Source of the DNA: Glycomyces albidus
Lineage (GTDB): Bacteria; Actinomycetota; Actinomycetes; Mycobacteriales; Micromonosporaceae
Direction: 5' to 3'
DNA: 64,000 nucleotides
Assembly (NCBI RefSeq): GCF_009451885.1
Contig: NZ_WIAO01000004.1
Coordinates: forward strand, 186,001 to 250,000
The position numbers were made by a program, and so were the translations under genes. Positions 35,814 through 45,782 of the stretch are shown one piece after another (position 1 is the first letter of the stretch; each line of letters begins with the position of its first letter). The notes under the pieces were generated by a model, which saw only the letters and a program-made list of their open reading frames with translations, had not been told where the DNA came from and did no database searches.

Positions 35814-35991
35814 CGAATATCGGCCACGTCTCAGAAGCGTTAGGGTCCGTCACCTTCCTCTCACCCGATCGTTGGACGCTGCGGGACGGTGACGCGCGTG
35901 CGCATGCTGCCGCATACTGGAGGCGCCGATCCGTCCTGGTCATGAACGAACCCGAGCGATCAGGAAGGAGGCCGACATGGGAGGTCTGACG

Positions 35992-36597
35992 ATGGTGGCG
36001 ACCGAGGCACCGAGACATACGCACGGAGCCGACCGCGATCTTCTCTGGGAAACCTGGGAAGAGCTCGATCTGCCGCCTGGTTCTCGCGCGGAGATCCTGC
36101 GAGGAGCGATCTACTTGTCGCCTACACCGATGTCCAGGCACAACCGGCTGTACTTCAAGCTGGCCAAACTGCTCAATGACGTCGTCAACGAACACGACTG
36201 GGCGGTCATCAACACCGAGACGGTGCTGCTGCCCGCGACCGACGAAGCTGCGGTGCCCGACATGGTCGTGGTACCGGATGAGGTCCTCGACGAGCACGAC
36301 GACTGGCGTCTTCCTCCTGACGACGTGCAACTGGTAGCCGAGATCACCTCCGACTCGACGCGCAAGCGCGACCTCACCGTCAAGCTGGAGAGCTACGCGA
36401 AGGCGAACATCCCGATCTACCTGGTCATCGACCAATTCGACGGCGAGGGCACCGTCACCGTGTACCACCAGCCGGACGGAACCGGCCGCTACCTCCAGCA
36501 CCAGACGGTGCCGTTCGGCGAACCGATCCGACTCCCGAAGCCCTTCGACATCGAGCTGGACACCATGGAGTTCCAGTCCCGCCGACGCAAGGCTTGA
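35992..36597 (+). CDS. Uma2-family putative restriction-endonuclease-fold protein (paralogue 1)
   Basis: A 201-residue protein with the DUF820/Uma2 PD-(D/E)XK fold. Motifs: EILRGAIYLSP (the conserved Glu), AVPDMVVVPDEV (the Asp), VAEITSDSTRKRDLTVKL (E-x-x-S then Lys) and YAKANIPIYLVID. The start is ATG 35992, because its paralogue at 55522 begins MVA in the same context and both have GGGAGG 7 nt before. The earlier ATG at 35977 would place that GGGAGG inside the gene. Uma2 proteins are extremely numerous in actinomycetes; DNA cleavage has not been established for most. Confidence 0.88.
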   Translation: MVATEAPRHTHGADRDLLWETWEELDLPPGSRAEILRGAIYLSPTPMSRHNRLYFKLAKLLNDVVNEHDWAVINTETVLLPATDEAAVPDMVVVPDEVLDEHDDWRLPPDDVQLVAEITSDSTRKRDLTVKLESYAKANIPIYLVIDQFDGEGTVTVYHQPDGTGRYLQHQTVPFGEPIRLPKPFDIELDTMEFQSRRRKA

Positions 36598-36617
36598 AGC
36601 AGGCATGCTCAACTGCG

Positions 36618-36639
36618 GCCGGTCCGGTTTCGGGCCGGC
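36618..36639. terminator. Convergent terminator Uma2/folP2
   Basis: A 9-bp stem with one G-U pair (36618-36626 with 36631-36639) and a GTTT loop lies between the convergent stops. Confidence 0.55.
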
Positions 36640-36648
36640 CGGCGGTGT

Positions 36649-37512
36649 TCACAGGCTCCGGTGCGGGGCCTTCGGAGGCTTGTCGCCCTTGATCGCCGCG
36701 ACCATGTCGAGGACCTCGCGGGTGGCGGCGACGTCGTGGGCGCGGAAGACGCGGGCGCCGTTCCAGGCCGAGACCGCGGTCGCCGCGAGCGTGCCGTTCA
36801 GGCGCCGGTCCACCGGCAGATCGAGCGTCTCGCCGACGAAGTCCTTGCGGGACAAGGCGACCAGGACGGGCCAGCCGGAGTCGGAGAGCTCTGCGAGCCG
36901 GCGGGTCAGCTCCAGTGAGTGGTACGTGGTCTTCCCGAAGTCGTGGGTCGGGTCGATGAGGATCCCGTCGGCGCGCACGCCCGCCGCCACCGCGGCCTCG
37001 GCCCGGTCGACGAGCTCGGCGCGGACCTCCTTGACGACGTCGCCGTAGACGGCCTTCGCGGCCACCGTGCGCGGCTCGAGCCCGCCGGTGTGGGAGACGA
37101 CGAGCCCGGCGCCGGTGTCGGCGGCGACCTCGATCACCGACGGGTCCCAGCCGGCCCACGTGTCGTTGATGAGCTCGGCGCCGGCGGCGACCGCTTCGCG
37201 GGCGACCTCGCCGCGCCAGGTGTCGACGGAGACGACCAGCTCGGGGTGGCGGTCGTGGACGGCGGCGATGAACGGGACGACCCGGTCGATCTCCTCGGCG
37301 ACCGTGACCTCGGGCCCGTCGCCGGCCTTGACCCCGCCGACGTCGACGATGTCGGCACCGCTCGCCACCGCGCTGTCGACCGCGGCGACGGCCGCATCGA
37401 ACGCGAACGTCCGCCCGGAGTCGTAGAACGAGTCGGGCGTGCGGTTGACGATCGCCATCACCGCGTAATCGCCGCCATCGAACACCCGTCTGCCAAGTCG
37501 CAACGCACGCAT
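36649..37512 (-). CDS. FolP2-type dihydropteroate synthase homologue
   Basis: A 287-residue TIM-barrel protein. VMAIVNRTPDSFYDSGRTF aligns with the DHPS signature but carries Arg where true FolP1 has Val, and Tyr-Asp where most have Ser-Asp-Gly, as in mycobacterial FolP2. DVGGVKAGDG replaces the canonical GGEST-type pterin site, so DHPS activity is doubtful. LSRKDFVGE and RAHDVAATREVLDM resemble the C-terminal DHPS motifs. ATG at 37512 is chosen; a longer reading to 37554 is Cys-rich and not family-like. Position after dapE/LOG matches folP2. Confidence 0.88.
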   Translation of the reverse strand: MRALRLGRRVFDGGDYAVMAIVNRTPDSFYDSGRTFAFDAAVAAVDSAVASGADIVDVGGVKAGDGPEVTVAEEIDRVVPFIAAVHDRHPELVVSVDTWRGEVAREAVAAGAELINDTWAGWDPSVIEVAADTGAGLVVSHTGGLEPRTVAAKAVYGDVVKEVRAELVDRAEAAVAAGVRADGILIDPTHDFGKTTYHSLELTRRLAELSDSGWPVLVALSRKDFVGETLDLPVDRRLNGTLAATAVSAWNGARVFRAHDVAATREVLDMVAAIKGDKPPKAPHRSL

Positions 37513-37595
37513 GCATCTATGCTGACAGCCGCACCAGCCTCCCGCCAGCCGCACCGGTGAACGCGGGGATGTGAATGAGCACAGGAGGAGCCGCC

Positions 37596-38861
37596 ATGCC
37601 CCGCTTCGACAGGTCGCACACCGACGACCTCGCCGCGTTCATCCAGGCCAGTCCCACCCCGTACCACGCGTGCGCCGAGGCCGCGAAGCGGTTGGAGGCG
37701 GCCGGGTTCCGGCGGCTCGCCGAGACGGACGACTGGCCGGCCGGCGAGCCCGGCGGCCACTACACCGTGCGGGACGGCTCGATCATCGCCTGGCGGGTGG
37801 ACGACCCCTCGATCGGCGCGTTCAGGATCTTCGGCGCCCACACCGACACCCCGACGTTCAAGGTCAAGCCCGACCCGGACCTCGGCTCGGCGGGCTGGAA
37901 GCAGATCGCCGTCGAGGTCTACGGCGGCGTGCCGCACCAGACCTGGCTCGACCGCGACCTGTCGGTCGCCGGGCGGCTCGTCATGCGCGACGGCTCGGAG
38001 GTGCTCGTGCACGTCGACCGCCCGCTGCTGCGCATCCCGCGCCTGGCGATCCACCTCGACCGGGGCGTGAACGAGGGCCAGAAGCTCAACGCCCAGACCC
38101 AGTTGACGCCGGTCTGGGGCATCGGCGCGGCCCGGCCCGGCGAGTTCCTCGAGTTCATCGCCGCCGAGGCCGGGGTCGACGCGGCCGACGTGTTCGGGCA
38201 CGACCTCTTCACCGTGGCGCTCGACCCGCCCGCGTACCTCGGCAAGGACGAGGAGCTGTTCGCCGCCTGGCGGCTCGACAACCTGACGAGCACCCACGCC
38301 GGGATCGCCGCCCTCATCGCCGCCGAGGGGACCGGCGCGAACGTGCCCGTGCTCGCCGCGTTCAACTACGAGGAGATCGGCTCGACGACCTACTCGGGCG
38401 CGCAGAGCCCGTTCCTGGAGACCGTCCTCCGCCGCGTCCTCGGCGGCGACGCCGACGAGGCGTACGCGAAGACCATCGCCGCCTCCGCGATGATGTCCTC
38501 CGACACCGGCAACGCCGTCCACCCCAACTTCCCCGAGAAGCACGACCCCGTGCACCGGCCGATCCCCGGCGGCGGCCCCATGATCAAGGTGAGCGCGAAC
38601 CAGCGGTACGCCAGCGGCGCCGAGGAGCACGCCCTGTTCCGGCGCTCCGCCGAAGCCGCCGGGATCCCGTGGCAGACGTACGTGAACCGCAACGACATCC
38701 CCGGCGGGACCACCATCGGGCCGCTCTCGGGCACGCAGCTCGGGATGCTCACTGTGGACGTCGGGCTCCCGATCCTGTCGATGCACTCGGCGCGCGAGCT
38801 GTGCGGCTCGGACGACCCGGGGTACCTCGCGGACCTGGCCTTGGGCATGTTCACGCACTGA
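37596..38861 (+). CDS. M18-family aminopeptidase
   Basis: A 421-residue cytosolic zinc aminopeptidase (PepC/ApeB type) preferring acidic or other N-termini. Dinuclear-metal motifs are visible: GAHTDTPTFKVK, NYEEIGS, ASGAEEHALF and LSMHSARELCGSDD. ATG 37596 is chosen since GGAGGA lies at 7-nt spacing; the earlier ATG at 37575 would put that site inside the gene. The family forms large tetrahedral oligomers. Divergent from folP2 with no obvious shared operator. Confidence 0.94.
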   Translation: MPRFDRSHTDDLAAFIQASPTPYHACAEAAKRLEAAGFRRLAETDDWPAGEPGGHYTVRDGSIIAWRVDDPSIGAFRIFGAHTDTPTFKVKPDPDLGSAGWKQIAVEVYGGVPHQTWLDRDLSVAGRLVMRDGSEVLVHVDRPLLRIPRLAIHLDRGVNEGQKLNAQTQLTPVWGIGAARPGEFLEFIAAEAGVDAADVFGHDLFTVALDPPAYLGKDEELFAAWRLDNLTSTHAGIAALIAAEGTGANVPVLAAFNYEEIGSTTYSGAQSPFLETVLRRVLGGDADEAYAKTIAASAMMSSDTGNAVHPNFPEKHDPVHRPIPGGGPMIKVSANQRYASGAEEHALFRRSAEAAGIPWQTYVNRNDIPGGTTIGPLSGTQLGMLTVDVGLPILSMHSARELCGSDDPGYLADLALGMFTH

Positions 38862-39076
38862 GGACGTCGAGGACGCGGAGGGCACCGGTGCCCCACACCG
38901 CAGGCGCCGGCGACGCGGTGAACGGGCCGCAGGACCGCTCCGGCCCGCAGGACCTGCCCCCGACGGCCCCGGATCCGGGTGCGGTGCACTCGCATTCGCG
39001 CTCCGCTCCGGTCTCCTCACGCGGCGCGGCGCCCCGGTAAGGTGGTGTCGACCACGGCACCCCTGGGGAGGCGGCA

Positions 39077-41617
39077 TTGACTTGGCGGACCGAACTCGAG
39101 CGGGCCGCCGCGCGGCTGCGCGAAGCCGCCGGGGCCGCTGACCGGGCCGAGCGGCTGCTCGCCGAGGCCGCCGCGCGCCTGGCCGCCGACGACACCGAAC
39201 GGCGCAGAGGCGAACTCGCGAGGCGGCTCGCCGCCGCCGCCGCGGGCGCCGCGACCGGATGGCTCGGCGACGACCTCCGCGACACCGACCCGAACACTCC
39301 CGTATGGACCGACCCTGCGGCGACGGCGGCGGTGCGCGTCGGCACCGCCCTCCTCGACGGCGCCGCCGACGGCCCCGAACCCGCGTTCCCCGCCCTCGTC
39401 GGCCTGCTCGGCAAAGGGCACCTGGTGTGCGACGGCGACGCCGCCGACCCCCGCGTGGCCGGGATGCTCCAGTCCCTGCTCGTCCGGATCACCGCCGCGC
39501 ACCCGAACCTCGAACTGTCCCTCGTCGACGGCGTGACCCTCGGCCAGGTCTTCGCGCCCGCCACGGCACTCGTCGACGCCGGGATCGCCGCCACGGTCGC
39601 CACCGACCACCTCGCGCTCGGGCGGGTCCTCACCGCCGCCGAGAAGCGGCTCACCGAACTGCGCGACATCGCCGCCCGCGGCCAGTCGATCGCCGACCGG
39701 CCCTTTCACCTCATCGTCGTCGCCGGGCTCCCGCCGGAGGTCGGCAAGTCCACGCGCGAACGGCTCGCGGCCCTCGCGCACGCCGGGCCCTCCGCCCGCT
39801 GCCACCTCGTCCTCTGCGGCTGGCGCAACCTGCCGCACCGCGAGGCGCTCCCCGCGATCGAGCACGCCACCTACCTCGAATGCGGCGACGAGGCCCGCCT
39901 CGGGAACCTGCCGCTCCCGGTCGTCCTCGACGCCCCGCCGCCGCCAGCGCTGGCGCGCAACGTCTTCGGGTCCCGCGCCCGCCAGCGCCGCGAAGCCGGC
40001 GAGCTGTCGGTCGCCGACCTCGTCCCCCAGGAGCTGTGGACCGAGTCGAGCCGCGACGGCCTCACCACCGTGATCGGCCGCGACCAGGCCGGACACACCG
40101 CCGGCGGCGACGTCGCGGTCTCGTTCGACGACGCGACCCCGCACTGGCTCATCGGCGGGCGCACCGGCGGCGGCAAGACCGTGTTCCTCCTCGACGTCCT
40201 CTACGGGCTCGCGACCCGCTACTCCCCCGACGAGCTGGAGCTGTACCTCCTGGACTTCAAGGAGGGCGTCTCGTTCACCGAGTTCACGCCCTCGCCGCTC
40301 GACCCGTCGTGGATCCCGCACGTCAAGGCCGTCGGCGTCGAGTCCGACCGCGAGTACGGCGTCGCGGTCCTCGGGGCGCTCCGCGCGGAGCTGACGCGCC
40401 GGGCCGGGCTGATGAAGCGGGCCGGGGCGACCCGGCTGGCGCGGCTGCGCGAACTGCGGCCCGAGGTGCGGCTGCCGCGGATCGTGGCGGTCGTCGACGA
40501 GTTCCACGTGCTGTTCGCCGGGAACGACCGGCTCGCGGGCGAAGCGGTCGCGCACCTGGAGGAGCTGGCGCGCAAAGGCCGCTCGTACGGGGTGCACCTG
40601 GTGCTCGCGTCGCAGACGATCTCGGGCATCGAGGCGCTGTACTCCAAGAAGGACTCGATCTTCGGGCAGTTCCCGCTCCGGGTGGCGCTGCCGGGCGCGA
40701 AGCACCTGCTCGACGAGGGCAACGACGCGGCGGTCGAGTCGGTCGGGCAGGCCGTCATCAACGACGCCGGGGGGCTCAAGGGCCGCAACCGGACCTGCCG
40801 GTTCCCCGACGCGTCGAGCGCGGACGAGCTGCTGGCGACCCTGCGGCGGGACCTGTGGGCGCGGCGGGACTCGGACGAGGAGCCGGTCGTGTTCCGCGGG
40901 TTCGACGAGCAGCACCTCGCCGCCGATCCGCGGTTCGAAGCGCTCGCGCCGCCCACGCACGCGCCGCGGGCCCTGATCGGGCGCGCGGTCGACGTCCACA
41001 TGTCCACAGTGGGCTACCGGTTCGACAAGAGCCCCGGCCGGCACCTCGCCGTCCTCGGCACCTCGATCGTCGCCGCCGACGTGCTCACCTCCGCCGCGGT
41101 CTCCCTGGCGCGCCAGCACGAACCCGGAAGCGTCGAGTTCCAGATCGCGGCCACGGCGGCCGGCGCGGAGGGCGTCGCGCGCGACCTCGTGGAGGAGCTG
41201 AAGGCCGCCGGGCACGAATGCCGCGAACTCGAACCCGGGACGATCCTCACCGCGCCGCGCGGGAAACCGGTCTACCTGGTGTGGTTCGGCGCCGACGGCG
41301 CCGACGGCCAGCCCGGGACCCTGCGCGACCTCCTCCTGCACGGCCCGGCGGCCGGCGCGCACCTCATCGGCTGGTGGCGCGGGGCCCGGCGGTTCCTCGA
41401 CGACATCGGCGGATCGGCCGGGCGCGAGAGCTGCGCCGGCGTCGTCGCGCTCAACATCGCCGCGAACGACCTCGCCGCGATCACCGGCGGCTACGAGCGG
41501 ACCTGGGACGCGCGCGCGAACCGGTGCCTGGTCATCGACCGGCACGCGGGCGGCGAGACCCTCGCGGTCCCGTACGTGCGGCCCGGCCGCCTGGACGAGG
41601 TGGTGGAGACCCGATGA
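39077..41617 (+). CDS. FtsK/SpoIIIE-like DNA-translocase-family ATPase
   Basis: An 846-residue protein. Residues 1-60 are a charged coiled coil. The FtsK motor domain has Walker A GGRTGGGKTVF (~residues 361-371), Walker B RIVAVVDEFHVLF and HLVLASQTISGI. No N-terminal membrane helices or C-terminal winged-helix gamma domain are visible, so it is not the divisome FtsK. A C-terminal degenerate ATPase-like region follows. TTG start follows GGAGG. The next gene overlaps by ATGA and encodes a coiled-coil membrane protein, a plausible membrane anchor as SmeA is for SffA in Streptomyces. DNA or protein substrate is unknown. Confidence 0.85.
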   Translation: MTWRTELERAAARLREAAGAADRAERLLAEAAARLAADDTERRRGELARRLAAAAAGAATGWLGDDLRDTDPNTPVWTDPAATAAVRVGTALLDGAADGPEPAFPALVGLLGKGHLVCDGDAADPRVAGMLQSLLVRITAAHPNLELSLVDGVTLGQVFAPATALVDAGIAATVATDHLALGRVLTAAEKRLTELRDIAARGQSIADRPFHLIVVAGLPPEVGKSTRERLAALAHAGPSARCHLVLCGWRNLPHREALPAIEHATYLECGDEARLGNLPLPVVLDAPPPPALARNVFGSRARQRREAGELSVADLVPQELWTESSRDGLTTVIGRDQAGHTAGGDVAVSFDDATPHWLIGGRTGGGKTVFLLDVLYGLATRYSPDELELYLLDFKEGVSFTEFTPSPLDPSWIPHVKAVGVESDREYGVAVLGALRAELTRRAGLMKRAGATRLARLRELRPEVRLPRIVAVVDEFHVLFAGNDRLAGEAVAHLEELARKGRSYGVHLVLASQTISGIEALYSKKDSIFGQFPLRVALPGAKHLLDEGNDAAVESVGQAVINDAGGLKGRNRTCRFPDASSADELLATLRRDLWARRDSDEEPVVFRGFDEQHLAADPRFEALAPPTHAPRALIGRAVDVHMSTVGYRFDKSPGRHLAVLGTSIVAADVLTSAAVSLARQHEPGSVEFQIAATAAGAEGVARDLVEELKAAGHECRELEPGTILTAPRGKPVYLVWFGADGADGQPGTLRDLLLHGPAAGAHLIGWWRGARRFLDDIGGSAGRESCAGVVALNIAANDLAAITGGYERTWDARANRCLVIDRHAGGETLAVPYVRPGRLDEVVETR

Positions 41618-42267
41618 GCCTGAGCGCCTACGACGACCTGGTCCACGAACTCGCGCGCCTGGACGCGGACTCGGCGGCCAGCACCGCCCAGGCCGCCCGG
41701 CGCCTCGAGCGGCGCCGAAGCGCCCTCGCCGACGTCCGGTCCGATCTGGACGAGCAGACCGCGCGGATCGCCGAACTGTGCTCGGCGCTGCGCACCACGA
41801 CCCCCGACCTCGTGCCGGACCCCGCAGTCGAGGAGGCCGAAGCGGCCGTGCAGGACCCGGACGCGGCGCTGGCGCACGCGCAGACGGCGCTGCGCGAGGC
41901 CGAGGCGGCGCGGACGGCGACCGTGCGCGCCGCGCAGCGGCCGACGCTGCTGCCGGGCGTCCACCACGTGCTCCGCGAACTCCTCGTCTACGGGTCGTGC
42001 ATGATCGCCTGCCTCATCGGCCAGTTCGCCTACCTGGCCGCGAGCGGCGGTGGCGGCGAGGCCCTGTGGTCGGTCGTGTTCCTGTCGCCGGTGCTGGCGG
42101 CACTGGTGGGATATCTGCTGGTGGGCGCCGCGAACCGGCCCCGGCTGCCGCTCACGGACCGGCACGGGAAACCCGTCAAGCCGGTCGTCCCCCGCAACCC
42201 GCGTCTGGGAGTGACCCTCGCGGTCTGCACAATGGCGCTGTTCGCCTATTTCGCGTTCTTCGCTTAG
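41614..42267 (+). CDS. Coiled-coil membrane protein of the FtsK-like operon
   Basis: A 217-residue protein. Residues ~1-60 and ~75-108 are strongly helical, charged coiled coils (DAALAHAQTALREAEAAR). Then four hydrophobic segments follow: LLVYGSCMIACLIGQFAYL, ALWSVVFLSPVLAALVGYLLV, and LGVTLAVCTMALFAYFAFF, with a basic loop RHGKPVKPVVPRNPR between. The ATG overlaps the FtsK-like stop. I do not recognise a family. Context suggests it places the FtsK-like motor at the membrane. Confidence 0.75.
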   Translation: MSLSAYDDLVHELARLDADSAASTAQAARRLERRRSALADVRSDLDEQTARIAELCSALRTTTPDLVPDPAVEEAEAAVQDPDAALAHAQTALREAEAARTATVRAAQRPTLLPGVHHVLRELLVYGSCMIACLIGQFAYLAASGGGGEALWSVVFLSPVLAALVGYLLVGAANRPRLPLTDRHGKPVKPVVPRNPRLGVTLAVCTMALFAYFAFFA

Positions 42268-42285
42268 AGCTGCTTGGAGGTTCCC

Positions 42286-42834
42286 GTGGGTCTCGTGCTC
42301 CCGGTCATCGTCGCCGTCATCGGCGTGTGGATCGCGTTCTCGATCGTCGTGTGGGCCACCGGCCGCGACACGCTGCTGGACCTCGCCCCCGCCGGCGCCC
42401 CGGCCGGGCTCGGCGACGAGGAGCCGGTCAGCGAGGCGTCCATCGGCGCCCTCAAGTTCGACACCGGCGCCCGCGGCTACCGGACCGACCAGGTCGACGC
42501 GGCCCTGACCCGCCTGGCATGGGAGATCGGCCGCCGGGACGAGCAGCTCGCGGCCCTGCGCGCCGAACTCGGCACCGGCGCGGAGGAGGCCGCCGAGGCG
42601 GAGGCAGAGGCGGAGGCGGAGGCCGAGGTGCTCGCCGCCGTCGACGAGGGCGTGGAGCCCGCGACCGGGGACGAGGACTTCGAACCGGCCGAGGAGGCGG
42701 GCGAGTCGTTCGACGAGCCGCTCGACGAGGACACGTTCCGGCTCGCCAAGGAGTCCGGCGCGGACGGCGACGGCGCGGGACGTGAGGCAGCGCGCGAGGA
42801 CGACGGGGAGCAGACGCCGCGCAGCGGCTCGTGA
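42286..42834 (+). CDS. DivIVA-domain-like membrane protein
   Basis: A 182-residue protein. GTG at 42286 follows GGAGG. An N-terminal membrane helix (VLPVIVAVIGVWIAFSIVVW) precedes a short DivIVA-type segment: FDTGARGYRTDQVDAALTRLA matches the F-x-x-x-xRGYD/xxQVDxFL pattern. The tail is very acidic with an EAEAEAEAEAE run, hence low-complexity. DivIVA-type segments mark curved membrane or septa. Third gene of the FtsK-like operon, 18 nt after the second. A cell-division or pole-related role is inferred. Confidence 0.75.
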   Translation: MGLVLPVIVAVIGVWIAFSIVVWATGRDTLLDLAPAGAPAGLGDEEPVSEASIGALKFDTGARGYRTDQVDAALTRLAWEIGRRDEQLAALRAELGTGAEEAAEAEAEAEAEAEVLAAVDEGVEPATGDEDFEPAEEAGESFDEPLDEDTFRLAKESGADGDGAGREAAREDDGEQTPRSGS

Positions 42835-42846
42835 TGGGATAGGCCC

Positions 42847-43344
42847 ATGCGTTATTGGCTGCTGGTGTTGAACGAAGACGAGTACGCGGAGCAACAGGCG
42901 TACGAAGTCGAGGCAGTGGAGCCGAGCGGGGCCGTTCCCGAGGGCGCCGGGGACGGCGACGAGGTCGCGCTGGCCGGTCCCGAGGGCGTCTTCGCGCTCG
43001 GGGAGTTCGACGGCTCCGCGATCGCGTACCGCCGCCGCCTCGAGGAGCCCGAGAAGACCGCGGAGAGCGCCGCGGCCGGCGAGGGGTGGACCTCGCTCAC
43101 GCCGGACGCCTGGGAGGACCTGGTGCGGGCGCTGCCGACCCCGGAGCGGCGCCGCGACTGGCTCGTGACCCTGTCCATGCCGATCGAGGCGGTCGACAAG
43201 GCCGAGGCCGTGCGCCAGTTCTGGTCCTACATCCGCTCGCTCGGGCCGAAGGAGCTGCCGACGTTCGTGGCCCCGTACGGGCGCGAGATCGAGGGGACCG
43301 CGTTCCTGCTCGGGGCCGAGCACGAGCAGGACCCGGAAGAGTAG
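42847..43344 (+). CDS. Hypothetical protein, 165 aa
   Basis: I do not recognise this soluble acidic protein. It begins MRYWLLVLNEDEYAEQQAYE and ends in an acidic EHEQDPEE. TPDAWEDLVRALPTPERRRDWLVTLS and AEAVRQFWSYIRSLG are amphipathic helices. No signal peptide or membrane segment is seen. It begins 12 nt after the DivIVA-like gene and probably belongs to that operon. Confidence 0.65.
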   Translation: MRYWLLVLNEDEYAEQQAYEVEAVEPSGAVPEGAGDGDEVALAGPEGVFALGEFDGSAIAYRRRLEEPEKTAESAAAGEGWTSLTPDAWEDLVRALPTPERRRDWLVTLSMPIEAVDKAEAVRQFWSYIRSLGPKELPTFVAPYGREIEGTAFLLGAEHEQDPEE

Positions 43345-43570
43345 TCACGGCGCGGAAGGGGCCGTCAGGATCCGGCAGTATTCCAGTGCTGTGGACACGT
43401 GAATCGGAAATCCGCAAATTCGCTGTCCGATTTCATGGCTTTTAAGCACTTTCTCCGCAACTTTGTCACATACTCGGAGGGGCGAGTTGGCTCTCGGCCT
43501 GCGGATCGGGGAAACTTGATCTAGCAACGTCGAGTCGCAACCTGCGGCCTTGGATCGAGGGGAGACGAAT

Positions 43571-43738
43571 ATGGCGGCCATGAAGCCGCGGACTGGCGAT
43601 GGTCCGCTGGAGGTTACCCAGGAGGGCCGCGGCATCATCATGCGGGTGCCGCTGGAAGGCGGTGGCCGACTTGTGGTCGAGATGTCGCCGGAAGAGGCCG
43701 AGACCTTGAACAAGGAACTCCAGGGCGCCCTCGAGTAA
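43571..43738 (+). CDS. DUF3117 protein, 55 aa
   Basis: A small, highly conserved actinobacterial protein (Rv1211-like) of unknown function. MAAMKPRTGDGPLEVTQEG, RGIIMRVPLEGGGRLV and EMSPEEAETL match family positions. ATG at 43571 follows GGGGAGA. The preceding 226 bp hold no gene and may contain its promoter and a leader. Confidence 0.9.
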   Translation: MAAMKPRTGDGPLEVTQEGRGIIMRVPLEGGGRLVVEMSPEEAETLNKELQGALE

Positions 43739-43793
43739 CGGCAGCAAGCCCACCCCACTCGGCGGTCACCCCGCCGCCGGTCCGGACTGGGGG

Positions 43794-43819
43794 CCCGCTC
43801 CGCGGTCGCGCGGAGCGGG
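43794..43819 (+). terminator. Terminator after DUF3117
   Basis: A perfect 11-bp stem (43794-43804 with 43809-43819) with a GTCG loop is followed by TCCTTTCTC, 56 nt after the stop. Confidence 0.8.
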
Positions 43820-43912
43820 TCCTTTCTCGTGCCCTCGGACCGGCCGGAGTGGACGCTCGGACAGGACGCGAGAGGGAATCGCAGCGGCCGTGAAGGGGCG
43901 GCAAATGCGGCA

Positions 43913-43918
43913 TAGACT
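43913..43918 (+). promoter_or_regulatory. Leaderless -10 of the HtrA-like protease
   Basis: TAGACT ends 6 nt before the ATG at 43925, and no Shine-Dalgarno is present. Confidence 0.5.
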
Positions 43919-43924
43919 CTTGTC

Positions 43925-45220
43925 ATGAATTCCGGCACCCAGCCGCCCCAGGCAGATCCGGGCGACCAGTGGCGGCTCCGGCAACCCTGGCAGCCGTCCG
44001 AGGCGCGGCCGCAGTCGGCGCCCGCCGAGCCGGCCGCGCAGTCGGCGTGGTGGAACCCGGCCGCGCCCGGCGACCCGTGGCGCGACCCGGCCAGCCACGC
44101 CGTCATCGAGACCCGCCCGGCCCCGGCCGCGACGCCGGTCGAGCCGCTGCCCGAGCGGCCGCGCGGCGCCGCGCGCGCCGGCCTCGGGCTCGTCATCGCC
44201 GTCTCGGCGATCACCGCGCTCATCGCCGGGACGCTCGGGGCGGCCATCGGCATCTGGGCCGTCCGCGGCGACGGCGGCGGCACCATCACCGGCGCCGACC
44301 CCGAGACCGCCCGCGACCTCTCGTCCGTCGCCGGCGTCGTCGAGCAGATCATGCCCTCGGTCGTCACGGTCCTCACGCCCGACGGCGGCAACGGCTCGGG
44401 CTTCATCGTCTCCGACGACGGCTACCTGCTGACCAACCACCACGTGGTCGCCGGCGGCGGGTCCGTACCCGCCGAGAGCCTCCAGGTCCTGTTCAGCGAC
44501 GGCTCGGTGACGACGGCCGCGGTCATCGGCTCCGACCCGGACTCCGACGTGGCCGTCCTCCAGATCGAGGGCGGCGACCACCCGGCGATGGTCCTGGCCG
44601 ATTCCGACCAGGTCGCCGTCGGCGACCCGGTGCTCGCGGTGGGCGCGCCGCTCGGGCTGTCCTCCACGGTCACCGAGGGCATCGTGTCGGCGATCGACCG
44701 GCCCGTGCTGACCGAGAACAACAACGGCGAGGTCGAGTCCGTCATGGCCGCGATCCAGACCGACGCCGCCATCAACCCCGGCAACTCCGGCGGGCCGCTC
44801 ACCGACATCGCCGGGCAGGTCATCGGCATCAACACCGCGATCGCGTCGACCGCCGCCGAAGGCGAGGCCGGGAACATCGGGATCGGGTTCGCGATCCCGA
44901 TCAACCAGGCGAAGCGCATCGCCGACGAGATCATCGCGACCGGCAGCGCCACGCACGCCGTCCTCGGCGCCGAACTCGGGGAATCCGAACTGGGCATCGG
45001 CGTGACCCTGAGCAAGATCGTGGCCGGCTCGCCCGCCGACGACGCCGGGATGGAGGACGGCGACGTCGTGACCAGCTTCGACGGCACCACGGTCACCGAG
45101 AACACGCAGCTCATCGCCCTCATCCGCAAGCTCGCGCCGGGCACGACGGTCACGGTGGTGTACGAGCGCGATGGCGAGGAGCACAGCGCGCAGGTCACTC
45201 TAGAAGCGGCCGGGGACTGA
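43925..45220 (+). CDS. HtrA/DegP-like trypsin-type serine protease with PDZ domain
   Basis: A 431-residue envelope-quality-control protease. Residues 1-83 are a cytosolic Pro-rich tail; ~84-112 a membrane helix; then the protease domain with catalytic His173 (TNHHVV), Asp208 (DSDVAVL) and Ser288 (GNSGGP); ~330-431 a PDZ domain (AGSPADDAGMEDGDVVTSF). So the catalytic part is extracytoplasmic. Next to tatB as in mycobacterial htrA/tatB, though no adjacent sigma or anti-sigma gene is seen. All catalytic residues are intact. Confidence 0.95.
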   Translation: MNSGTQPPQADPGDQWRLRQPWQPSEARPQSAPAEPAAQSAWWNPAAPGDPWRDPASHAVIETRPAPAATPVEPLPERPRGAARAGLGLVIAVSAITALIAGTLGAAIGIWAVRGDGGGTITGADPETARDLSSVAGVVEQIMPSVVTVLTPDGGNGSGFIVSDDGYLLTNHHVVAGGGSVPAESLQVLFSDGSVTTAAVIGSDPDSDVAVLQIEGGDHPAMVLADSDQVAVGDPVLAVGAPLGLSSTVTEGIVSAIDRPVLTENNNGEVESVMAAIQTDAAINPGNSGGPLTDIAGQVIGINTAIASTAAEGEAGNIGIGFAIPINQAKRIADEIIATGSATHAVLGAELGESELGIGVTLSKIVAGSPADDAGMEDGDVVTSFDGTTVTENTQLIALIRKLAPGTTVTVVYERDGEEHSAQVTLEAAGD

Positions 45221-45287
45221 CGTGGGGGTACGCTAGGCGGAGGTTTTTCAGGTATCAGCAGTCACGGTCGGTCATCGGAGGGTCAGC

Positions 45288-45782
45288 GTGTTCGGAGGCT
45301 TGGGCGGAACCGAGTTCCTCGTGATCATCCTCATCGCGATCTTCCTTTGGGGCCCCGACAAGCTGCCGAAAGCCCTCGCAAACCTGCGACGGTTCATCTC
45401 CAAGGCCCGGAACATGGCGTCGAACGCCGCGGCCGACCTGAGCCGCGAGATCGGCACCGACATCCGCCCCGAGGACCTCAACCCGAAGACGTTCGTCCGC
45501 AAGCACATCCTGAGCGAAGAGGACCAGGAGATGCTCACGAACCCCCTGAAGTCGACGATGCGCGACCTCCAGGACGGCGTCAAGCCGCTCCAGGAGGGCC
45601 TGACCGACACCACCCGCGAGATCGAGGGCACCCGCCGCAGCGTCAACCGCGGCGCGCTCACCCGCGGGACGAACGGCTCGGCGAACGGGTCCGGGAACGG
45701 CTCGGGCACGGGCGCCTCCGACGAGGCCGCACCCGCCGAGCGCACCCGCGGCCGCGCGGCCAGCTTCGACGACGTCACCTGA
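45288..45782 (+). CDS. tatB: Twin-arginine translocase subunit TatB
   Basis: A 164-residue membrane protein recognising Tat signal peptides with TatC. One short N-terminal membrane helix (FLVIILIAIFLWGPDKLP) and an amphipathic helix (ALANLRRFISKARNMAS) are the family plan. A Gly/Ser/Asn-rich disordered C-terminus follows. GTG follows CGGAGG. TatB is favoured over TatA by the length and by the GPDKLPK turn. Confidence 0.93.
   Translation: MFGGLGGTEFLVIILIAIFLWGPDKLPKALANLRRFISKARNMASNAAADLSREIGTDIRPEDLNPKTFVRKHILSEEDQEMLTNPLKSTMRDLQDGVKPLQEGLTDTTREIEGTRRSVNRGALTRGTNGSANGSGNGSGTGASDEAAPAERTRGRAASFDDVT

What the first reader, a model, noticed from the sequence alone, without database searches (positions are those of the whole stretch)
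39077..43344. FtsK-like motor with coiled-coil membrane and DivIVA-like partners
An FtsK-type ATPase without its own membrane anchor is encoded with a coiled-coil membrane protein (ATGA overlap), a DivIVA-motif membrane protein and a small unknown protein. The set recalls the SffA/SmeA-type membrane-targeted FtsK-like system of Streptomyces and may pump DNA during septation, or serve another DNA process.
Basis: inference. Interest (0 to 1): 0.5.

Follow-up and report, generated by a model that had tools for sequence, protein, structure and literature searches.

The report
EccC-like motor with membrane partner
Two of the four genes form a conserved pair, an EccC-like protein motor and a membrane protein, that looks like part of a small secretion-type system in soil actinomycetes rather than a DNA pump for cell division; the other two genes are old, probably unrelated neighbours.

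Summary
The four genes are real but probably not one functional set.

In 11 of 11 relatives read (of 15 family genomes outside the genus), the DivIVA-motif and small proteins sit in an older neighbourhood; only 2 of the 11 carry the FtsK–membrane pair there.

The "FtsK" is not an FtsK-type DNA translocase by architecture: 846 residues, three tandem RecA-like domains, only the middle one with intact Walker motifs, no gamma domain, no anchor, closest to the type VII secretion ATPase EccC. Canonical FtsK and EccC are separate genes.

Elsewhere in the class the motor goes with a membrane protein and an ~86-residue, probably two-helix protein. In 296 genomes the latter occurs in exactly the 31 with a close motor relative; outside the window's order it lies just downstream in 22 of 27. 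The same domain heads polymorphic toxins (7 of 10 selected proteins).

Best reading: motor and anchor of a minimal type VII-like export module. The window's clade lacks a linked two-helix gene (0 of 27), so its cargo is unknown.

The parts
39077..41617 (+). EccC-related FtsK/HerA-superfamily ATPase, 846 aa, TTG start; no transmembrane anchor
   Evidence: AlphaFold model mean pLDDT 89; Foldseek best match EccC 4nh0 E 1.7e-29
39080..39250 (+). N-terminal helix (residues 2-58), coiled-coil candidate; no membrane anchor
   Evidence: secondary structure
39329..39928 (+). First RecA-like domain (about residues 85-284), no Walker A
   Evidence: domain bounds drawn by eye from the model
40061..40801 (+). 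Second RecA-like domain (about residues 329-575), the only one with intact Walker A (360-368) and Walker B (471-476)
   Evidence: Walker A lysine in 41 of 43, Walker B aspartate in 43 of 43, glutamate in 41 of 43 family members
40967..41575 (+). Third RecA-like domain (about residues 631-833), degenerate Walker A
   Evidence: domain bounds drawn by eye from the model
41614..42267 (+). Membrane partner (CC), 217 aa: helices 3-59, 70-78 and 82-107, then three membrane helices 118-144, 150-173, 196-216; ATGA overlap with the ATPase
   Evidence: downstream in 27 of 27 loci of the clade
42286..42834 (+). Neighbour, probably not part of the module: DivIVA-motif protein with one N-terminal hydrophobic segment, GTG start
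   Evidence: TIGR03544 9.8e-6; present in 11 of 11 relatives read, 9 of them without the pair beside it
42847..43344 (+). Neighbour, probably not part of the module: conserved small protein without known family
   Evidence: Found in 37 of 37 genomes of the family at E 0.01, one of them weakly (G042), and in 0 of 24 others; beside the pair in the genus and in 2 of 11 relatives read

Best explanation
The ATPase and the overlapping membrane protein are two parts of an actinobacterial three-gene module related to type VII secretion: (1) a soluble motor with three tandem FtsK/HerA domains, the middle one active; (2) a membrane protein with N-terminal helices and C-terminal membrane segments that anchors the motor, in place of EccC's own anchor; (3) an ~86-residue, probably two-helix protein that often ends in [Y/F]xxx-hydrophobic. 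Proposed working: the membrane protein forms a ring, the motor docks on it, the flanking dead domains gate the middle ATPase or bind the C-terminal motif, and ATP hydrolysis drives export of the two-helix protein and of toxins that carry the same domain at the N terminus. Shown by computation: domain layout, gene linkage, co-occurrence, the domain on toxins. Inferred: ring, docking, gating, recognition, export. The window's copy has no two-helix gene beside it; it may serve one encoded elsewhere or have a changed cargo. The DivIVA-motif and small proteins are neighbours, not parts.
For: Motor: three tandem RecA-like domains; Foldseek EccC 4nh0 over 934 columns E 1.7e-29, best FtsK motor 322 columns E 3.2e-14; VIA-align EccC Z 28.5 over 483 residues; EccCa 91.5 bits versus 24.5 for FtsK, EccCa matched by 43 of 43 family members, FtsK by 29 of 43. 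Pair: membrane protein downstream in 103 of 119 loci, 30 repeats of the same places dropped; of the 16 misses 4 run to the end of the sequence held, 12 are in divergent branches. Third gene: in 296 class genomes the two-helix profile (E 1e-6) is in 31, exactly the 31 whose motor match is better than 1e-160, a line drawn after the fact (the next motor match is 7.5e-104); none in the other 265. Outside the window's order 22 of 27 copies lie 0.5-1.7 kb downstream on the same strand, the other 5 on another contig; in 5 of 5 such loci read a protein with hydrophobic C-terminal segments lies between. In 61 relatives: 39 genomes with both, 18 with neither. Toxins: of ten selected proteins with the domain near the N terminus, five carry DddA-like and two CdiA_C domains. 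[YF]xxx-hydrophobic C terminus in 38 of 68 distinct small copies.
Against: The window's clade has no two-helix gene within 3 kb (0 of 27), and the window genome has one copy in all, beside another paralogue. Two-helix and WXG100 profiles are not demonstrably homologous (hhalign probability 14%). EccB, EccD and EccE equivalents were not sought. The middle ATPase alone matches FtsK motors as well as EccC (Z 28.5 each), and conjugation coupling proteins come just under Pfam's cut-offs (TrwB_AAD_bind 20.4 of 20.5, TraG-D_C 21.3 of 22). One relative (G045) has a motor but no two-helix hit, and three (G039, G055, G056) have weak hits (5e-5 to 6e-4) without a motor. Fifteen of the 46 class genomes with a motor-like match have no two-helix hit; all 15 have distant motors. 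The class search scored only 3 motor and 18 two-helix candidates per genome, so misses are possible. Shared ancestry is not corrected for. Copies of middling strength, 0 of 28, and weak ones, 4 of 35, are rarely near a motor, and I noticed no motor beside the toxin genes, so their export by this motor is inference. No localisation or secretion data.
Confidence: 0.5

Rival explanations
1. A septal DNA translocase: the motor pumps chromosome DNA through closing septa, held there by the membrane protein and the DivIVA-motif protein.
For: The middle ATPase aligns with FtsK motors at 25% identity over 272 residues, Z 28.5; a DivIVA-motif protein is 18 bp downstream; the order is fixed in 22 of 22 genomes of the genus.
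Against: No gamma domain found; the one gamma domain of the genome is in another gene; two extra degenerate domains; the DivIVA-motif gene is without the pair in 9 of 11 relatives read; 29 of 40 genomes that have the family hold three copies.
Confidence: 0.13
2. The window copy descends from the export module but has been repurposed: having no linked two-helix partner, it energises another membrane process such as membrane-domain or envelope organisation, without secretion.
For: 0 of 27 loci of the clade have the two-helix gene within 3 kb, while the membrane partner is kept in 27 of 27. A sister paralogue (B type) lies beside a Band_7 (flotillin-like) gene in Glycomyces.
Against: Two clade members outside Glycomyces (L020, L022) have next to the pair a protein family that elsewhere sits beside two-helix genes; but that family is also in three genomes without a motor (G026, G028, G053), so the link is weak.
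Confidence: 0.22
3. A defence or nucleic-acid-processing ATPase of the HerA kind with a membrane effector.
For: PADLOC matches SspH 3.4e-20, mad8 7.7e-17, HerA 1.7e-4 through the ATPase domain.
Against: The family is in 36 of 37 genomes of the window's family and at one place in the genus; defence genes are usually patchy (general knowledge). No effector domain was found in the pair.
Confidence: 0.08
4. The four genes do work together in Glycomyces: an inserted motor pair recruited the DivIVA-motif protein for polar or septal placement.
For: Tight spacing and fixed order in 22 of 22 genomes of the genus and in G049 and G050.
Against: The neighbours keep older company (DHPS, HtrA, TatB) in most of the 9 relatives read without the pair.
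Confidence: 0.12

Closest known systems
EccC, the ATPase of type VII (ESX) secretion (4nh0, TIGR03924/TIGR03925)
   Same: Tandem FtsK/HerA domains with one canonical active site; best sequence and fold match
   Different: 846 aa instead of about 1350 for the genome's own EccC; no transmembrane segments; three RecA-like domains instead of EccC's DUF plus three ATPases (EccC layout recalled); far below the curated cut-off (91.5 against 509 bits)
[quoted passage not shown] 2012, PMC3482391, table footnote; passages read)
   Same: The same domain count and the same active middle domain, with a small helical partner in related loci
   Different: [quoted passage not shown] here in Actinomycetota, at fixed chromosomal places in the genus, with a small partner that does not match WXG100 and a membrane protein the footnote does not mention. 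No direct sequence comparison was made
SffA/SmeA of Streptomyces
   Same: FtsK-like ATPase gene beside a membrane protein gene
   Different: Stated to be absent from other actinobacteria (PMC4255298); septal role in sporulation; sequences not at hand for comparison
FtsK/SpoIIIE DNA translocases
   Same: Superfamily and middle ATPase fold
   Different: No gamma domain, no own anchor, two extra degenerate domains
DUF6244 (PF19757)
   Same: 6 of 21 two-helix proteins match it (best 9.1e-31)
   Different: Pfam gives no function; here found beside the motor pair and related to toxin N-termini

Membership tests
FtsK/HerA ATPase superfamily | FtsK_SpoIIIE domain with Walker A and B | tested here: met
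   PF01580 78.7 bits, cut-off 24; motif residues kept in 41-43 of 43
EccC (type VII secretion ATPase) | Score over the curated EccCa cut-off | tested here: not met
   91.5 bits against 509.15
EccC (type VII secretion ATPase) | Own N-terminal membrane segments | tested here: not met
   None in the model or by hydropathy in the N-terminal part
EccC (type VII secretion ATPase) | Tandem FtsK/HerA domains | tested here: met
   Three RecA-like domains; EccC aligned over 934 columns
EccC (type VII secretion ATPase) | Gene cluster with EccB, EccD, EccE and WXG100 proteins | tested here: not met
   None among the nine proteins scanned from 35977 to 45779; the canonical EccC is on contig C45
FtsK/SpoIIIE DNA translocase | C-terminal gamma domain (PF09397) | tested here: not met
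   Not among the Pfam matches at E 0.1; the sole genome match is G000:C14
FtsK/SpoIIIE DNA translocase | Translocates double-stranded DNA | not testable with these tools
   Needs biochemistry
SffA/SmeA | Sequence orthology with SCO1416/SCO1415 | not tested
   Sequences not held; a review says absent outside a few genera
SffA/SmeA | Localisation to sporulation septa | not testable with these tools
   Needs microscopy
YueA-like three-domain ATPase of 'mobile T7SS' | Three FtsK/HerA domains, only the middle active | tested here: met
   (activity judged from Walker motifs only)
YueA-like three-domain ATPase of 'mobile T7SS' | Associated solo WXG protein | tested here: inconclusive
   A small partner in other loci, not shown to be WXG100 (hhalign 14%); none seen beside the window copy
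DivIVA | DivIVA domain | tested here: inconclusive
   TIGR03544 motif over cut-off (25.1 against 22); PF05103 under cut-off (17.6 against 28)

The most novel reading that the evidence does not exclude
A separate, minimal type VII-like export system of Actinomycetota made of three proteins (three-domain motor, membrane anchor, two-helix protein with a [Y/F]xxx-hydrophobic tail), with its own class of polymorphic toxins (dsDNA deaminases, CdiA_C-type nucleases) that carry the two-helix domain as export tag; the window holds one of three paralogues in its genome, with motor and anchor kept and the two-helix gene gone or elsewhere.
Probability: 0.35. Interest if true: 0.75.

Novelty: new variant of a known kind. 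Interest (0 to 1): 0.52.

Why it matters
If the reading holds, some FtsK-like and DUF6244 proteins of these actinomycetes belong to a compact secretion-type machine, simpler than ESX, with an identifiable tag on antibacterial toxins. That would give a small, testable model for how EccC-like motors recognise cargo, and a candidate exporter for a class of dsDNA-deaminase toxins. It also warns that synteny within one genus can make unrelated neighbours look like a functional set.

Tried and rejected
Four-gene unit: set aside because the DivIVA-motif and small genes keep older company without the pair in 9 of 11 relatives read; four further family genomes (G023, G042, G046, G052) were not read there. 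FtsK-type translocase: rejected as family membership. A CC–two-helix fusion in L118: suggested by a 328-codon frame, but gene calls show two genes in different frames. WXG100 homology of the two-helix protein: hhalign probability 14%, not claimed. DUF6244 genome search: 1 of 61 genomes, under cut-off, so my own profile A4 was used. A4 was built from copies found near motors, so linkage inside the order (43 of 46 strong hits within 5 kb) is partly circular; its rows come from the window's order except two unplaced genome bins (L024, L070), so the counts outside the order are the independent ones. One search left out one hit and the A- and B-type motors of Glycomyces; one search repeats it with the full lists (28 instead of 27 mid-strength hits, still none linked). 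Proximity to ESX: in the five genomes read, one motor clade lies within 20 kb of canonical EccC, but the genes between look like ordinary housekeeping genes (names recalled, no family search), so it was not used. EspC or weak WXG100 matches beside B-type motors: in L078 and L109, none seen by eye in L112, L185, L186, L187, L167, L170, so not used. Fold search of the membrane protein: no match under E 1. An EVE fold for the small protein was an idea from its first residues and was not tested. Papers: DUF6244 0 hits; listings (titles and starts of abstracts) show nothing describing this module; that is the extent of the novelty search. Passages read: PMC3482391, PMC4255298, PMC5859096; no paper was read whole.
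Full report
What is there. The ATPase gene starts at TTG 39077 and ends at 41617; the membrane protein gene starts at ATG 41614 inside it; the DivIVA-motif gene is best started at GTG 42286; the small gene is 42847-43344. Spacing is -4, 18 and 12 bp. The best named matches are Glycomyces at up to 92%. All four genes are in 22 of 22 genomes of the genus in the same order.

The set is probably not one unit. I fetched the region around the small protein in 11 of the 15 family genomes outside the genus. The DivIVA-motif and small genes are in all 11. The window's next gene (43550-43738, DUF3117-like, name recalled) is found in 9, HtrA in 8 and TatB in 7 of the 11 regions, some of which are cut short; DHPS lies within 0.5 kb of the DivIVA-motif gene in six. 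The ATPase and membrane protein lie in that place in only two of the 11 (G049, G050). The small protein is in 37 of 37 genomes of the family, G042 weakly. So the pair most likely entered an existing neighbourhood in the ancestor of Glycomyces and two near genera.

What the ATPase is. Pfam finds one FtsK_SpoIIIE domain over cut-off, residues 343-516; two conjugation coupling families come just under theirs. NCBIfam ranks EccCa first (5.6e-26), FtsK far behind (5e-6), all below cut-off; over the 43-member alignment EccCa matches 43 and FtsK 29. PDB sequences: EccC 2.5e-20, FtsK 6.4e-8. The AlphaFold model (43-row alignment, pLDDT 89, pTM 0.77) shows an N-terminal helix and three RecA-like domains; only the middle one has Walker A and B. 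Foldseek puts EccC and EssC first (4nh0 over 934 columns, E 1.7e-29; TM 0.49 and rmsd 11, so domain placement differs), FtsK motors next over about 320 columns. VIA-align gives EccC Z 28.5 (483 residues, 4.0 A) and FtsK Z 28.5 (272 residues, 2.7 A): the middle domain alone does not decide, the tandem layout does. FtsK's gamma domain is absent; the genome's one gamma domain is in another gene, G000:C14. Canonical EccC is also another gene, G000:C45.

The membrane partner. The 217-residue protein is modelled (pLDDT 91, pTM 0.67) as a 57-residue helix, two further helices and three membrane helices; Foldseek finds nothing under E 1. A homologue is downstream in 103 of 119 motor loci, after 30 repeats of the same places were dropped, and in 27 of 27 of the window's clade. 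Of the 16 misses, four run to the end of the sequence held; ten are in the C clade and two in distant families of the order, where the profile is weak.

The third gene. Beside many motors lies an ~86-residue protein, two helices by its sequence pattern (not modelled); six of 21 match DUF6244. In a 75-row tree the window sits in a clade of 19 rows (SH-aLRT 99) without this gene within 3 kb, while a separate clade of 16 rows has it in 15. Over all fetched loci, nine assigned to the window's clade by identity rather than by the tree: window clade 0 of 27, B clade 2 of 11, C clade 15 of 16, others 35 of 65. Class-wide, 296 genomes were searched with the motor profile (46 at 1e-60; 31 better than 1e-160, the next at 7.5e-104) and with the two-helix profile (31 at 1e-6); the 31 are the same genomes, and none of the other 265 has it. 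The two calls report the same number of genomes with the same handles; I take the samples as identical. The search scored only the best 3 and 18 candidates per genome. Outside the window's order 22 of 27 copies lie 0.5-1.7 kb downstream on the same strand and five are on other contigs. In five of five such loci read, a protein with C-terminal hydrophobic segment(s) lies in between, although the window's membrane profile does not detect it. In the 61 relatives, 39 genomes have both, G045 has a motor only, G039, G055 and G056 have weak two-helix hits only. Shared ancestry inflates any p-value, so none is claimed.

The link to toxins. Weaker genome hits of the two-helix profile include N-terminal domains of proteins of about 240-300 residues; I chose 18 regions, favouring long frames. 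Of ten such proteins scanned (two more, in L151 and L156, were not), five carry DddA-like dsDNA deaminase and two CdiA_C domains; three carry no known toxin domain. The small copies end in [YF]xxx-hydrophobic in 38 of 68 distinct cases and none shows YxxxD/E in the last 12 residues; ESX substrates carry YxxxD/E at the end of the second helix (recalled). In the toxin-type set the corresponding tyrosine is invariant among ten. Middling hits are not beside motors (0 of 28 within 5 kb) and weak ones seldom (4 of 35).

Interpretation. A soluble, EccC-like motor, a membrane protein and a small two-helix protein whose domain also heads toxins together suggest protein export. The steps shown are architecture, linkage and co-occurrence; docking, recognition and export are inferred. 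The window's copy keeps motor and anchor but not the third gene, and its genome has one two-helix hit in all, beside another paralogue. So the function of this copy is less sure than that of the module. In two clade members outside Glycomyces (L020, L022) a ~200-residue protein follows the pair; its homologues sit beside two-helix genes in L145, L153 and G022, a possible remaining link, weakened by its presence in three genomes without a motor (G026, G028, G053).

Known kinds. Zhang et al. 2012 (PMC3482391; [quoted passage not shown] The motor here has that layout, so the kind is known; the actinobacterial form, its membrane partner, two-helix partner and toxin link were not in the listings my searches gave. 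SffA and SmeA are said to be absent from other actinobacteria (PMC4255298, passage read).

Noticed in passing
   Followed up: partly
L109, L112, L185-L187 (B-type paralogue): A second motor-membrane pair lies beside a Band_7 (flotillin-like) gene and genes that look like molybdopterin synthesis (names recalled) in Glycomyces; in L078 and L109 EspC-family proteins lie close by.
   Followed up: partly
L110, L114, L116 (C-type paralogue): A third type has the order two-helix gene, 265-359 aa protein with helical-looking N terminus and proline-rich part, motor, membrane protein; the two of the 265-359 aa proteins scanned have no family.
   Followed up: no
L115, L117: Two motors have lost the Walker A lysine and the Walker B glutamate, so they are probably dead ATPases though still beside a membrane protein.
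   Followed up: no
L020:11208-11807, L022, L145:4142-4780, L153:3092-3718: A ~200 aa family without Pfam match over cut-off recurs beside two-helix genes and downstream of the pair in two members of the window's clade, but also in three genomes without a motor.
   Followed up: partly
window 42847-43344: Small protein found in 37 of 37 genomes of the family, with an almost invariant acidic C terminus (EHEQDPE) in the genus; no known family.
   Followed up: partly
window 35977-36597: Uma2-family putative nuclease gene, found by tblastn in only 2 of 21 named Glycomyces-clade loci, several of them cut short; perhaps a recent arrival or often lost.
   Followed up: no
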